The notes under the pieces are model-generated. The model saw only the letters and a program-made list of their open reading frames with translations, was not told where the DNA came from and ran no database searches. A stretch of 64,000 nucleotides of DNA, from positions 38,119,361 through 38,183,360 of the forward strand of contig OX031064.1 of NCBI GenBank assembly GCA_943736015.1, read 5' to 3'. The position numbers and the translations under genes are program-made. The DNA comes from Tridacna crocea. Its lineage: Eukaryota; Mollusca; Bivalvia; Cardiida; Cardiidae. How positions within the stretch are numbered: the first letter of the stretch is position 1; every line of letters starts with the position of its first letter. Below are positions 33,301 through 45,644 of the stretch, one piece after another.

Positions 33301-36300
33301 ATCAACTGCAAATGTTTCAAATATGGAACTAGCCTGAAATTTTTTTGTTTGGCAAAGAGTTAAAAACATGACTTAATTTGACTGACAAGCCATTATCTTC
33401 AGTTTTTAACAAAGCTATTTATGTCCATAGTTCATTAAACATAACTATCTGTCTTTAGGTCAAAATTCAGAAAGAACACACAATGCACTGCTTTCAACTT
33501 TTACAATGTCTAGCATATCATCGGTTTGCTTCCAAAACCTCGTAACTACAGCTTGTAACAAGCTGTTGGAAGCAAATCGACCATATTGTCTCTGACTTAT
33601 AAAATTACCACACAATCTCAAAATGAACAGCCTTGAGAAAGAAGGCTTTTTAAAATATTGCGGAAAAAGGATTGGAAAAGAGTTCATAACCAGAGCACTG
33701 TTTTTATCTGACTCAAGACAAACCTTATTAATTTTAGCCACATTTTATGTCATCTGCAAATGCTTGTATTTGTGACTTAGTCTGAAATTTGGGTGTGTGT
33801 TAATTACGGAGTAAATTTTAAAGACATCGATGTAATCCTAGGACACTAAGCAAAGCCTACATTGCCTTTCTTTTTATGACCCTATGGAACGAAACCCTTT
33901 AACTCTACCAAATGACAAATTTTAGACTGGTCCAAATTGAAAACATTTGCAGAATTCCTTAAAAGTTTTTTTTTTACCCTGAAAATTTGGGGTAAAAAAT
34001 GGGATAGAGCTGTTTTTGGAGTGGTTATCTGTTCTGGTCCTGTTATATGGATACCCCATCACTTTCTTTAAAAATAACCCCCTTTAACTCTCTACCACAC
34101 AAGAAAATTTAAGACTGGTCCAAATTGAAAGCATTTGAAGACGACAAAATAAAGGTAACTGAAAAATAAAAAAATTGTTTAGGGAGGGGTAGAAAACATT
34201 GTGGGTAAAGGAGAAAATGCTGGTTACCAGCATTTTCAAAAGGCTTCTTTCTCAGGGTCTTTAAAAGTTGGGATTGTGTGGTAACAAGTTAAAAGACCTG
34301 AATGCCATAACCACTGAGCTAAAAATATAGAGATATCTCTTTAGCTCAGTGGTTATAGTATTGGTCTTTTAAACCTCGAAAAAATGAGGATATTCGTCCA
34401 CCATGGTTTTGAATCCCGCCTGGGATGAGGTTTGTAATTTTACTTACGCATTTCTTGTGAACTTTCATGTTTGTTAAAGAATCCATAATTATGTGACAAA
34501 AAACCTCGCACAATGCTTTGCGCATCACAGAGATGCTTTAAAACCCCTTTTGCAAGAGCACTGAAGAGCACAAATGGTTTTAAATAAGATTGGACAGGAA
34601 TCTGAAGTCTGAGTCTAGTCTAGCCAATCACAATGGTCTCTTACAGCTAAACTTACCCTACTATAATACTACTTAGCCCCTCACTAAATACTCCTTGGTT
34701 TTTATGACCCAGAGGAAGACGCCTTCTGAAAGCATTGTGGGAAAAGGAGAAAATGCTGGTAATCAGCATTTTCTCCTTTTCCCACAATGCTTTCTCCTCT
34801 TCTAAAGTCAAGTTTCAATTTTTTGAGTCACATTTATTTTGTCATCTGCAAATGCTTTCAACTTGGACAGGTCTAAAATTTTCTTGTTTAGTAAAGAGTT
34901 AAACTTTTGAGCACTAAGCAAAAACCCAGAGTTTCTATAGACGGTGTAAATCAAGATCAGACTGCACAGAATGGCAGTCTCATCTTAGATCTACACTATC
35001 TGATATTGATGTGAGACCTTCCAGAAAGAGATCTGATAACTGCAATAGAGCATTTAATCTCCATGATATTTTGAAATGTGCACTTAGAGCACTCTACAAT
35101 AAGGACTAAACCAAACCAAACTCAATAGTTAACAAATCATCTTAGTACCTTTTTTCTTATCTCTATGTCCTGAAGAAAATTTTATGCATGCAAATATCTT
35201 TTTACACAACAAGAAAATGCTACATCCTTTTAACCCTTTACCTGATATGCCAATTTGAGGCTCTTCCATTTCAGCAGCAAATAAAGATATGATGTCAAAA
35301 ATATGGACAAATGAGGATACAAATATCTGATTGAGTGGAAAACATTGTGGGAAAAGGAGAAATTGCTCGTTATGAGCAATTTCTCCTTTTCCTACAATGT
35401 TTTCAAAAGCTGTCTGTATTTGATACGTTAAAATGAGTATCTATGGAGTAAAGGGTTAACCCTTTACCACACAGCAAAATGTTAGACCTATCCAAATTAA
35501 AAGCATTTCCAGACAACAATTTTAAAGTGGCTCAAATGGTGCAATTTTGCTTTGATAGGGTAGAAAACTTTGCATTGTGGGAAAATTAGAAAATGCTAGT
35601 TACCAGCATTTTCTCCTTTTCCCACAATATTTTCGAAAGTCTTCTTCCTCAGGGGTGTTAAAAGTCGTCATTGTGTGGTAAAGGGTTAAGTCTAGTTACC
35701 TTTTAACAACAAAATTTTAGACTTGTCCAAACTGAAAGCATTTGCAGATGACAAAATAAATGTGATTCAAAAATCAAAATTTGACTTTGAAGTAGTAGAA
35801 AACAATGTGGTAAAAGGAGAAAATCATTTTCTCCTTTTCCCACACTGTTTTCAGAAGGCTTCTTCATCAGGGTTGTTAAAATCACCAGGGATTGTTTGGT
35901 AACTTACGAGTTAATGAAATAGGTGAATCTGAGGTTTGAAGTGTTACACTGCTTCCAGGCACTGCTGGTTTGATTCCCAGTTTAGCAATTTTTTTGCTGT
36001 GAACTGATCATGGCAATTATGGCAGGATTCATTCTTCTAATGGATGAACACTATTCTAAATGATGTTTTTGTGGAAAGTGGATGGAGGCTTCGAAAGAAT
36101 GTTGTAAAAAAGACTGCTAAAAGCAACTCCAGGAAAGTGTGGAGAGGTGCCATATTAATATGTAATAGTATTTAAAACTGTCTTTGTAAATAAATATCAC
36201 TGCAGCCAAGTCAAGCCATCAGATTTCATGTAACTTACTTTAAGTCTATACCAAACAATAAAATTTTACAATTGACGAAACAGAGAGCATTTGTAGACAA

Positions 36301-38963: not shown

Positions 38964-38982
38964 TTGCCTTAAAAAATTATTT

Positions 38983-39053
38983 GCCTCCAGTGAGGTTTGA
39001 ACTCACGACCCCTGGTTTACGAGACCAGTGCTCTACCACTGAGCTATAGAGGC
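38983..39053 (-). tRNA. tRNA-Thr (anticodon CGT)
   Basis: A 71-nt cloverleaf: acceptor GCCTCTA with TGGAGGC (seven pairs, one G-U), D arm GCTCAGTGGTAGAGC, anticodon stem CTGGT/ACCAG around loop CTCGTAA, variable loop GGGTC, T arm GTGAG-TTCAAAC-CTCAC. A and B boxes are intact, no intron is present, and a run of six T follows within about ten bases as a Pol III terminator. Looks functional. It sits alone between a MITE and a MULE-like element. Confidence 0.9.
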
Positions 39054-44194: not shown

Positions 44195-44644
44195 CTCATT
44201 ACCAAACAACAATAATTTAGGCTTGTCCAAATTGAAAGCATTAGCAGACGACAAAATAAAAGTGACTAAAAATTTGAATTTTGTTTTGTTAACCCTTTAC
44301 TCCATAGATACTCATTTCTACACATTGCTTGTAGGAGCTTCTTGACAACATTGTGGCAAAAGGTGAAATTGCTCGTGATGAGCAATTTCACCTTTTGTCA
44401 CAATGTTTTCTATGCTATCAAAAGGTGTCATTTACACATAAGAAATGGCTTCATCTTTGCTGTTACTTAAGGTCAGTTGGAGATACCACAGATATGCCTT
44501 ATGGGGTAAAGGGTTAAGGGTGGAAAACATTGTGGGAAAAGGAGAAAATGCTGGTTACCAGCATTTTCTCCTTTTCCCATGATGTTTTCTAAAGGCTTCT
44601 TTCTCAGGGTCATCAAAAGTTGGGATTGTGTGGTAATGGGTTAA
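44191..44644 (-). mobile_element. MITE, family A, split by a family B copy
   Basis: Left part ends GAATTTTGTTTTG at 44,288; right part resumes GGGTGGAAAACATTGTGG at 44,518 and ends GTGGTAATGGGTTAA. Confidence 0.92.
44289..44517 (+). mobile_element. piggyBac-type MITE, family B, nested in family A
   Basis: Full-length, bounded by TTAA on both sides within the surrounding copy. Confidence 0.93.
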
Positions 44645-44660
44645 AGCTCTCTATCAGTAC

Positions 44661-45171
44661 TGTTACGGGAGACCACTCCTTCCTGCATGGCATTCTCCCG
44701 ATTTAAATACAATACCTGGCTACTGCGTCAGAGAGATATCTCTTTGGCTCAGTGGTTAGGGTATTGGCTTTGCGTCCAGGAGTTCGGAGTTCGAATCCCG
44801 CTCCGATCCTTATTTCTGCCTTGCATTTATTCATTTGTTTCTTTGTTACGGACTTTGTTCGTAAGATGGGGGCTCGTCCGGGATTGGCCATTGAGCCATT
44901 AATCCCATTTGTTGTCCAAAATCGGACTTCCTGCCTAATAAGGCTTTGAGTCATCAATAAATGATGACTTTAAGAGGGGGTGTGTTACGGGAGACCACTC
45001 CTTCCTGCATGGCATTCTCCCGATTTAAATACAATACCTTGCTACTGCGTCAGAGAGATATCTCTTTGACTCAGTGGTTAGGGTATTGGCTTTGCGTCCG
45101 GGAGTTCGGAGTTCGAATCCCGCTCCGATCCTTATTTCTGCCATGCATTTATTCATTTGTTTCTTTGTTAC
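44661..45171 (+). mobile_element. TRIM: miniature LTR retroelement with tRNA-like block in its LTRs
   Basis: Two direct LTRs of equal length (189 bp; 44,661-44,849 and 44,983-45,171), about 98% identical, surround 133 bp without coding capacity. The PBS at 44,867-44,884 reads TGGGGGCTCGTCCGGGAT, the sequence complementary to the 3' end of tRNA-Pro used by murine leukaemia viruses; it starts 17 bp inside the LTR end. A purine tract (AAGAGGGGG) stands right before the 3' LTR, and both LTRs begin TG. Each LTR holds an A box (TGGCTCAGTGG) and a B box (GTTCGAATCC) at tRNA-like spacing. No clear target duplication was found. The element looks whole and fairly young, is non-coding by nature, and would need outside enzymes to move. 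Confidence 0.82.
44733..44811 (+). promoter_or_regulatory. tRNA-like Pol III promoter block in the 5' LTR
   Basis: The block runs from GATATCTCTTTGGCTCAGTG to the B box GAGTTCGAATCCCGC. Spacing of the A and B boxes suits TFIIIC binding. The acceptor and T stems pair poorly, so it is a promoter relic rather than a tRNA. The same block recurs at 45,055-45,133 in the 3' LTR. Confidence 0.6.
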
Positions 45172-45449
45172 TGACCTAACAAAGTATTGCTCTCTAGGCA
45201 CAAAGCAAGCTCTTAACGTTTTTTTTTGCAAAAGAACTTCTTGTAACCTTGCTATTCAGAGCTTTTGAGAACAGTGTTGCTTCTTTTTTGCCACACTGTT
45301 TTCTACAAAATTATTCTTTTTTTCACATAATATTTTTCTTTTGTGTTATTTGTACCATTTCTCAAGTCAACAATATTGAAATTGACAGGAGAAATAATGG
45401 AATAAACAGTTTCACATTAACCCTTGATTTTCATGACAATTAAGAAAAT

Positions 45450-45644
45450 CCTGTTAAGAAAATAATGGTAAAAGGAGAAAGTGGCAGTTACTGGCATTGC
45501 CAAGTTTTTCTTTGATATGGTAGAATACATTATTGGAAAAGTAAAAATTGCTGGTTACCAATATTTTCTCCTTTTCCAACTTTGTTTTCAAAAGGCTTCT
45601 TTCTCAGGGTTGTTAAAAGTCATGATTGTGTGATTAAGGGTTAA
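45450..45644 (-). mobile_element. MITE, family A, left end poor
   Basis: Hairpin AAAATTGCTGGTTACCAATA and right end TGTGTGATTAAGGGTTAA; a scrambled second hairpin piece lies to the left. Confidence 0.7.

What the first reader, a model, noticed from the sequence alone, without database searches (positions are those of the whole stretch)
44661..45171. Miniature LTR element whose LTRs carry a tRNA-like Pol III promoter and whose primer site fits tRNA-Pro
Seen: two 189-bp direct repeats, a purine tract before the second, an 18-base site equal to the murine leukaemia virus tRNA-Pro primer site, and in each LTR an A and B box at tRNA spacing. Known: plant Cassandra TRIMs carry 5S rRNA promoters in their LTRs. 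Inference: this is an animal counterpart using a tRNA-type promoter, so its RNA may be made by Pol III. Internal DNA is only 133 bp, so it depends on enzymes from elsewhere.
Basis: partly seen in the sequence, partly recalled or inferred. Interest (0 to 1): 0.82.

Follow-up and report, generated by a model that had tools for sequence, protein, structure and literature searches.

The report
Miniature retroelement with tRNA-like LTR promoter
This is one truncated copy of an abundant, recently active miniature retroelement of the known Helenus kind, and odd copies elsewhere in the same genome look like integrated reverse-transcription accidents that record its tRNA primer, a likely RNA start and a likely helper element.

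Summary
The element is real but its limits are misplaced. The LTR is 206 bp (44661-44866), the tRNA-Pro primer site abuts it (44867-44884), the internal part is 116 bp, and the window's 3' LTR is truncated near 45175. The genome holds many near-identical copies; among the best-scoring ones, 21 of 22 with at least two complete LTRs have exact 4-bp target duplications. The host's tRNA-Pro plus CCA matches all 18 primer-site bases.

The idea is not new: Helenus (Kojima 2024) is this kind, bivalve families with tRNA-Pro primers included.

What seems new lies in aberrant copies. 102 loci carry LTRs joined head-to-head at AGAGATATCTCT, just upstream of the A box. Of 16 fetched, both outer ends were readable in 11, and 9 of these show exact 4-bp duplications. 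One locus carries 39 nt of tRNA-Pro including CCA. Two loci join a palindromic Helenus LTR and primer site to an abundant tRNA-Pro Gypsy-like element. I read these as integrated strong-stop cDNA dimers and Helenus-Gypsy recombinants, which support tRNA-Pro priming, an RNA start near LTR 72-77 and Gypsy as helper. Pol III use is likely but not shown.

The parts
44661..44866 (+). 5' LTR, complete, 206 bp (TGTTACGGG...GTTCGTAAGA)
   Evidence: same ends in other copies, flanked by 4-bp duplications
44702..44709 (+). TATA-like TTTAAATA (LTR 42-49), about 30 bp before the inferred RNA start
   Evidence: exact in 3 of the 5 diverged LTRs (altered in L042b and L059a)
44732..44743 (+). Self-complementary AGAGATATCTCT (LTR 72-83); joint of palindromic LTRs elsewhere in the genome and inferred position of the RNA 5' end
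44745..44755 (+). A box TGGCTCAGTGG (LTR 85-95)
   Evidence: 84% identity to the window across 5 diverged LTRs from three loci; consensus recalled
44788..44798 (+). B box AGTTCGAATCC (LTR 128-138)
   Evidence: 87% identity across the same 5 LTRs, against 68% for the stretch between the boxes
44867..44884 (+). tRNA-Pro primer binding site, 18 of 18, flush with the LTR end
44867..44982 (+). Internal region, 116 bp, too short for any enzyme
44956..44961 (+). AATAAA in the internal region; no AATAAA or ATTAAA in the LTR
44972..44980 (+). Polypurine tract AAGAGGGGG
44983..45175 (+). 3' LTR, truncated at LTR position about 193; A box damaged (LTR G87A)
34301..34369 (+). Remnant of an old palindromic Helenus LTR centred on GATATC

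Best explanation
The window holds one copy, truncated at the 3' end, of a Helenus-type TRIM.

Inferred cycle. RNA starts just upstream of the A box (LTR about 72-77), probably made by Pol III from the A and B boxes that lie inside the transcribed part, and reads through the element, whose window copy contains no TTTT. The RNA is packaged by a Gypsy-type element with the same tRNA-Pro primer site. tRNA-Pro primes minus-strand strong-stop DNA, the usual two strand transfers follow, and the helper's integrase inserts the product with a 4-bp duplication.

Because the RNA 5' end is self-complementary (AGAGATATCTCT), the 3' ends of strong-stop cDNAs sometimes anneal to each other, or fold back, and extend. 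The head-to-head product (U5'R'-RU5-PBS) can stand in for plus-strand strong-stop DNA in the second transfer. That would give elements with a palindromic 5' LTR, or Helenus-Gypsy joints at the primer site.

Shown: the anatomy, target duplications, match to tRNA-Pro, palindromic LTRs with target duplications, joints to Gypsy-like sequence at the primer site, and a locus holding 39 nt of tRNA-Pro. Inferred: Pol III, the RNA start, Gypsy as helper, and the dimer mechanism.
For: Copies and target duplications. tRNA-Pro genes and primer match. Promoter boxes kept (84% and 87%) while the stretch between them (68%) and after them (61%) drifts. No TTTT in the 322-nt LTR plus internal sequence (0.4% of dinucleotide shuffles, 4.6% of mononucleotide shuffles) nor in 7 of 9 other Helenus LTRs tested, whereas 4 of 4 Gypsy LTR ends hold runs of 5. 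Palindromic LTRs: 102 sites, 38 exact, control 0; 9 exact target duplications of 11 readable among 16 fetched. Arms that look like different subfamilies in 6 of 18 compared (L053, L083, L085, L086, L087, L089), identical over 75 nt in 4 (L066, L088, L090, L091). 39-nt tRNA-Pro copy with CCA in L065. Gypsy-like element with the same primer site: 758 sites, 95 of the 100 listed reading AGAAAT before it; open gag-like frame in L071; decayed Ty3-type reverse transcriptase in the older relative L056. Helenus-Gypsy joints: L087+L092 and L053.
Against: No RNA data. ARAGORN and Rfam do not recognise a tRNA in the LTR. The TATA-like box is placed so that Pol II would start at about the same base, so the inferred start does not separate Pol II from Pol III. 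Diverged LTRs of L043 and L059 contain TTTT or longer. U3 1-40 (82%) and the U5 end (86%) are as conserved as the boxes, so box conservation stands out only within the tRNA-like part. The palindrome pattern itself fixed the joint at GATATC, and L061 joins elsewhere (LTR about 35 to about 118). L051, L053 and L061, which end at the 18-nt primer site, show no exact 4-bp duplication. In L089 and L091 the duplicated CCCA equals the end of the primer-site complement, so these two are less certain. The Gypsy joints are only two, share one Gypsy subfamily (93% over 706 bp), and could be later genomic recombination. No reverse transcriptase was seen in the young Gypsy-like family itself, of which only short stretches were fetched.
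Confidence: 0.75

Rival explanations
1. An ordinary Pol II TRIM: the TATA-like box drives transcription and the A and B boxes are relics of a tRNA-derived SINE that once inserted into the LTR.
For: TTTAAATA lies about 30 bp upstream of the inferred start. No tRNA fold is recognised. U3 is as conserved as the boxes.
Against: The boxes are kept while the rest of the tRNA-like part drifts. The 10 LTRs tested have no AATAAA or ATTAAA, and an AATAAA lies inside the element where it could end a Pol II transcript early. No TTTT in the window element.
Confidence: 0.3
2. The palindromic LTRs arose after integration, by inversion or repair between neighbouring copies or at the GATATC site, rather than during reverse transcription.
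For: Inverted neighbouring copies do occur (L080, L066). GATATC is the centre of a natural imperfect palindrome in the LTR.
Against: Outer ends are LTR 3' ends flanked by exact 4-bp duplications in 9 of 11 readable loci, which a later inversion would not create. The joint recurs at one site at 102 places. Full elements with a palindromic LTR, internal part and normal LTR also have target duplications (L076, L083, L084).
Confidence: 0.15
3. The shared primer site and the chimeras reflect chance and genomic recombination; the true helper is another, unseen element.
For: tRNA-Pro primer sites are common among LTR elements (recalled). Beyond the primer site the leaders mostly differ; only the old Gypsy copy L055 resembles Helenus, over 34 nt including the primer site at 85%. 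The Gypsy-like copies have an apparent 5-nt spacer before the primer site and Helenus none.
Against: The Gypsy-like family is abundant, and two Helenus joints run through its primer site. 4-bp duplications and Gypsy-like primer regions are what Kojima reports for animal Helenus.
Confidence: 0.3

Closest known systems
Helenus (Kojima 2024, PMC10886601), proposed TRIMp3 group
   Same: Small TRIM; tRNA-derived A and B boxes in both LTRs; primer site and polypurine tract; 4-bp target duplications as in animal families; tRNA-Pro among the primers of bivalve families
   Different: No sequence comparison with published Helenus consensus sequences was possible here. Palindromic LTRs, a tRNA-Pro read-through copy and Helenus-Gypsy joints are not mentioned in that paper's main text under the six terms searched
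Cassandra (plants; known here through PMC10886601)
   Same: TRIM with a Pol III-type promoter in the LTR
   Different: Cassandra carries 5S rRNA sequence; none found here
biv-TRIM (Satovic 2019, PMC6934838; abstract, first part of Results and passages read)
   Same: Bivalve TRIM with terminal repeats of 202-218 bp
   Different: No canonical primer site, 77-80 bp inner domain, PPT mostly GGGGAGA; here 116 bp, exact tRNA-Pro site, PPT AAGAGGGGG
Self-priming of HIV-1 minus-strand strong-stop DNA (described in PMC4668388, two passages seen)
   Same: Strong-stop cDNA primes itself through structure in its R region
   Different: There an aberrant product reduced by nucleocapsid protein (studied in vitro, recalled); here inferred from integrated genomic copies, some joining two different parents

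Membership tests
Helenus | TRIM: two LTRs and a short internal part, total length 311-1263 bp | tested here: met
   Of 26 distinct elements 18 are 528 bp, one 527, one 532, two are 850-bp three-LTR tandems and four show a single complete LTR, the truncated window copy among them
Helenus | tRNA-derived A and B boxes in the LTR | tested here: met
   Boxes read directly and largely kept in 5 diverged LTRs; but no tRNA recognised by ARAGORN or Rfam
Helenus | tRNA primer site next to the 5' LTR, and polypurine tract | tested here: met
   18 of 18 to tRNA-Pro, flush with the LTR; AAGAGGGGG
Helenus | 4-bp target duplications in animals | tested here: met
   21 of 22 elements with at least two complete LTRs; L032 matches 3 of 4; unreadable for the truncated window copy
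Helenus | Sequence relation to published molluscan Helenus families | not testable with these tools
   Repbase is not held and 0 look-ups in supplements were allowed
TRIMp3 | Transcription by RNA polymerase III | not testable with these tools
   No RNA data; indirect support only
Cassandra | 5S rRNA-derived promoter in the LTR | tested here: not met
   Rfam scan of 44601-45250 at E up to 1 shows no 5S rRNA
biv-TRIM | 77-80 bp inner domain without canonical primer site, usually with TGATCCCAAAGGAC | tested here: not met
   116-bp internal part with exact tRNA-Pro site; the segment is not in the printed internal sequence

The most novel reading that the evidence does not exclude
A Pol III-type TRIM has left, at 102 loci or more, integrated dimers of its own strong-stop cDNA. 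Two cDNAs, in at least six of 18 cases from visibly different subfamilies and so probably packaged together, anneal through a self-complementary RNA start (AGAGATATCTCT), and the dimer substitutes for plus-strand strong-stop DNA in the second strand transfer. The genome would then hold a natural record of normally transient reverse-transcription intermediates that reads out the RNA start, the primer tRNA (18-nt stops and one 39-nt read-through) and the helper element that shares the particle.
Probability: 0.5. Interest if true: 0.72.

Novelty: new member of a known kind. Interest (0 to 1): 0.52.

Why it matters
For Helenus the helper element and the use of Pol III are inferred from sequence resemblance (PMC10886601). 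The palindromic LTRs and chimeras found here offer a way to read RNA start, primer and helper from genome sequence, and make these questions testable in one animal. L065 also shows primer tRNA sequence joined to an LTR, a possible alternative to SINE insertion for how LTRs gain tRNA-like promoters.

Tried and rejected
Internal-region search of the own genome returned nothing; the tool skips very common words and other copies plainly carry the region, so this is not evidence of rarity. Egg-lysin family search for a host clue rang nowhere, controls included, so it says nothing. COX1 led to a 29-kb mitochondrial contig. A myosin search with six exons fetched was dropped after one translation because I recognised no muscle myosin among them, judged by eye from memory.

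Host naming: lengths were seen for 16 of contigs 1-18; that there are about 18 large contigs is inferred from their sum against 1.05 Gb. With a 29-kb mtDNA this resembles giant clams. I tested Tridacna derasa against its published chromosome lengths and rejected it: longest 81.02 Mb and mtDNA 24.95 kb there, 77.16 Mb and 29.0 kb here (passages of PMC11490831). The host is left unnamed. Its larger mitochondrial frames lie mainly on one strand, which fits marine bivalves (recalled) but proves nothing.

The first pattern for Gypsy partners found four sites, all diverged Helenus copies. The second gave 11: three Gypsy-like (L055, L056, L057) and eight Helenus or Helenus-derived. The idea that LTR position 50 marks the RNA start was dropped: it is the edge of the palindrome alignment. 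The first arm script found no palindrome centre in five loci (L084-L087, L089) because its threshold was too strict or the arms carry indels or differ; they were read. Literature searches for palindromic or inverted LTRs from self-primed strong-stop DNA (listings only, one paper followed up in passages) showed no title or abstract start describing them; one search returned no paper at all. Many subscription journals are not held, so prior description is not excluded.

Full report
Observation. The window carries two direct repeats, 44661-44853 and 44983-45175, 193 nt with 5 differences. Searching the window's own genome (31 contigs, 1.05 Gb) with the reported element gave 42 matches, 40 of them over essentially the whole query at 98-100% identity, from 1391 first-look candidates of which 40 were scored; the LTR alone gave 1774 candidates, 40 scored. 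Candidates are not confirmed copies. In other copies the LTR runs on to ...CGTAAGA, 206 bp, and is followed at once by the primer site or, at the 3' end, by a 4-bp target duplication. Of 26 distinct elements in L001-L038, 22 have two or three complete LTRs; 21 of these 22 have exact 4-bp duplications and the exception, L032, matches 3 of 4. In 10 of the 19 whose LTR pair was compared the two LTRs are identical. These loci are the best-scoring matches to the window, which favours young copies. So the window copy belongs to a family with very recent insertions and has lost the end of its own 3' LTR. The 17-bp gap before the primer site implied by the finding is an effect of that loss.

Primer. 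A pattern search found eight places with a tRNA-Pro-like 3' end. Four carry tRNA-Pro genes by ARAGORN (L062, L064, L067, L069). L063 holds the 3' part of one without a Pro call. L065 and L066 are Helenus derivatives and L068 is a Gypsy-like copy. The gene plus CCA matches the primer site 18 of 18.

Promoter. A and B boxes lie at 44745-44755 and 44788-44798. Against five diverged LTRs (from the three loci L042, L043, L059) the boxes keep 84% and 87% identity, the stretch between them 68% and the stretch after them 61%; but U3 1-40 keeps 82% and the U5 end 86%. The window LTR plus internal part (322 nt, 33.5% T) has no TTTT, which 0.4% of dinucleotide and 4.6% of mononucleotide shuffles equal. 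Of nine other Helenus LTRs tested, seven have none and two (L043, L059) have TTTT or longer; the four Gypsy LTR ends tested have runs of 5. There is no AATAAA or ATTAAA in the ten LTRs printed and one AATAAA in the internal part. No tRNA is recognised by ARAGORN or Rfam. This is modest, indirect support for Pol III.

Helper. A pattern that screens out typical Helenus LTR ends found 758 primer sites; 95 of the 100 listed read AGAAAT before the site. Of five places fetched, four (L071, L072, L073, L075) share an LTR end, a leader start and a gag-like start, and one (L074) is Helenus. Older relatives L055-L057 have the same site; L056 has a decayed reverse transcriptase whose best solved relative is that of Ty3. 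No reverse transcriptase was seen in the young family, of which only short stretches were fetched. The gag-like pieces tested match no Pfam family above its cut-off; calling them gag rests on position and appearance.

Palindromic LTRs. A 30-nt pattern for a head-to-head joint of two LTR R-U5 parts found 102 sites with up to 2 mismatches, 38 of them exact, and none in the reversed control. I fetched 16 of the 38 exact sites; L035, L053 and L066, also among the 38, had come in by other searches. The units consist of the LTR from about position 79 onward in both directions around GATATC; both arms reach the LTR 3' end in 14 of the 16, while L085 and L086 have lost the end of one arm. Both outer ends of the whole insertion could be read in 11 of the 16: exact 4-bp duplications in 9 (L076, L077, L079, L082, L083, L084, L088, L089, L091; the right end of L084 was read by eye), 3 of 4 bases in L078 and L081. 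In L089 and L091 the duplicated CCCA equals the end of the primer-site complement, so these two are less certain. L080 and L090 continue into further copies, L085 and L086 have the damaged arm, and L087 runs into Gypsy-like sequence. Eight of the eleven are solitary palindromes; L076, L083 and L084 are elements with a palindromic LTR at the primer-site end and an ordinary LTR at the other. The two arms are identical over 75 nt in 4 of 18 compared (L066, L088, L090, L091), look like different subfamilies in six (L053, L083, L085, L086, L087, L089), and differ by a few changes or an indel in the other eight.

Chimeras and tRNA copies. L065 holds 39 nt of tRNA-Pro ending in CCA, which the genes do not encode, joined to an LTR end and, at its other end, to the LTR's own tRNA-like part. 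In L051, L053 and L061 the primer site stops at 18 nt and other sequence follows; the pattern that found them required changes shortly after base 18, so the exact 18 is partly selected. On C3 (L092+L087) a palindromic LTR is joined through the primer site to the Gypsy leader and gag-like start (86% over 524 bp to L071); in L053 a palindromic LTR and primer site are followed by 14 nt, a Gypsy LTR piece and the gag-like start. The Gypsy parts of the two loci are 93% alike over 706 bp.

Interpretation. Annealing or fold-back of strong-stop cDNAs at a self-complementary 3' end, extension to the 18-nt primer copy, and use of the product in the second strand transfer would produce most of these forms: solitary palindromes, elements with a palindromic LTR, inverted double elements and joints to Gypsy. 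L058, L061 and L065 need further template switches. The model puts the RNA start at LTR 72-77, 8-13 bp upstream of the A box, which suits Pol III but also a TATA-driven Pol II start. Self-priming of strong-stop DNA is described for HIV-1 (PMC4668388, two passages).

Known relatives. The element meets the features of Helenus that could be tested (PMC10886601). Kojima reports molluscan Helenus from pteriomorph bivalves; the host here could not be named, so whether this widens the range is open. biv-TRIM and Cassandra fail tested features. The palindromic and chimeric forms do not appear in the Helenus paper's main text under six search terms, and three literature searches listed no description of them.

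Verdict. The finding itself is a new member of a known kind. The aberrant copies are the more interesting result and rest on limited samples.

Noticed in passing
window 34301-34369: Remnant of an older palindromic Helenus LTR centred on GATATC
   Followed up: partly
window 44340-44421, 44519-44600, 45519-45600 and 34213-34237; also L057 374-449 and L077: Recurring short palindromic repeat (GTGGGAAAAGGAGAAAATGCTGGTTACCAGCATTTTCTCCTTTTCCCA and relatives), MITE-like; the palindromic LTR of L081 sits inside a copy
   Followed up: no
window 38982-39053 (-): tRNA-Thr gene (anticodon CGT) called by ARAGORN
   Followed up: no
G000 C31 (L048-L050): 29,009-bp contig with mitochondrial COX1, long for an animal, with a long stretch reading N; larger frames mainly on one strand
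   Followed up: partly
L025, L033: Tandem elements with three LTRs (850 bp) and exact 4-bp target duplications
   Followed up: no
L058: LTR-internal-LTR followed by the 18-nt primer site joined directly to LTR position 15 of another LTR
   Followed up: partly
G000 C3 from 13871473 to about 13875035 (L035, L092, L087, L093): Two palindromic Helenus copies sharing an identical 400-bp stretch, about 3 kb apart, with reversed Gypsy-like sequence between them
   Followed up: partly
G000 C16: The seven best places for the older L043 subfamily, the query itself included, all lie on contig C16
   Followed up: no
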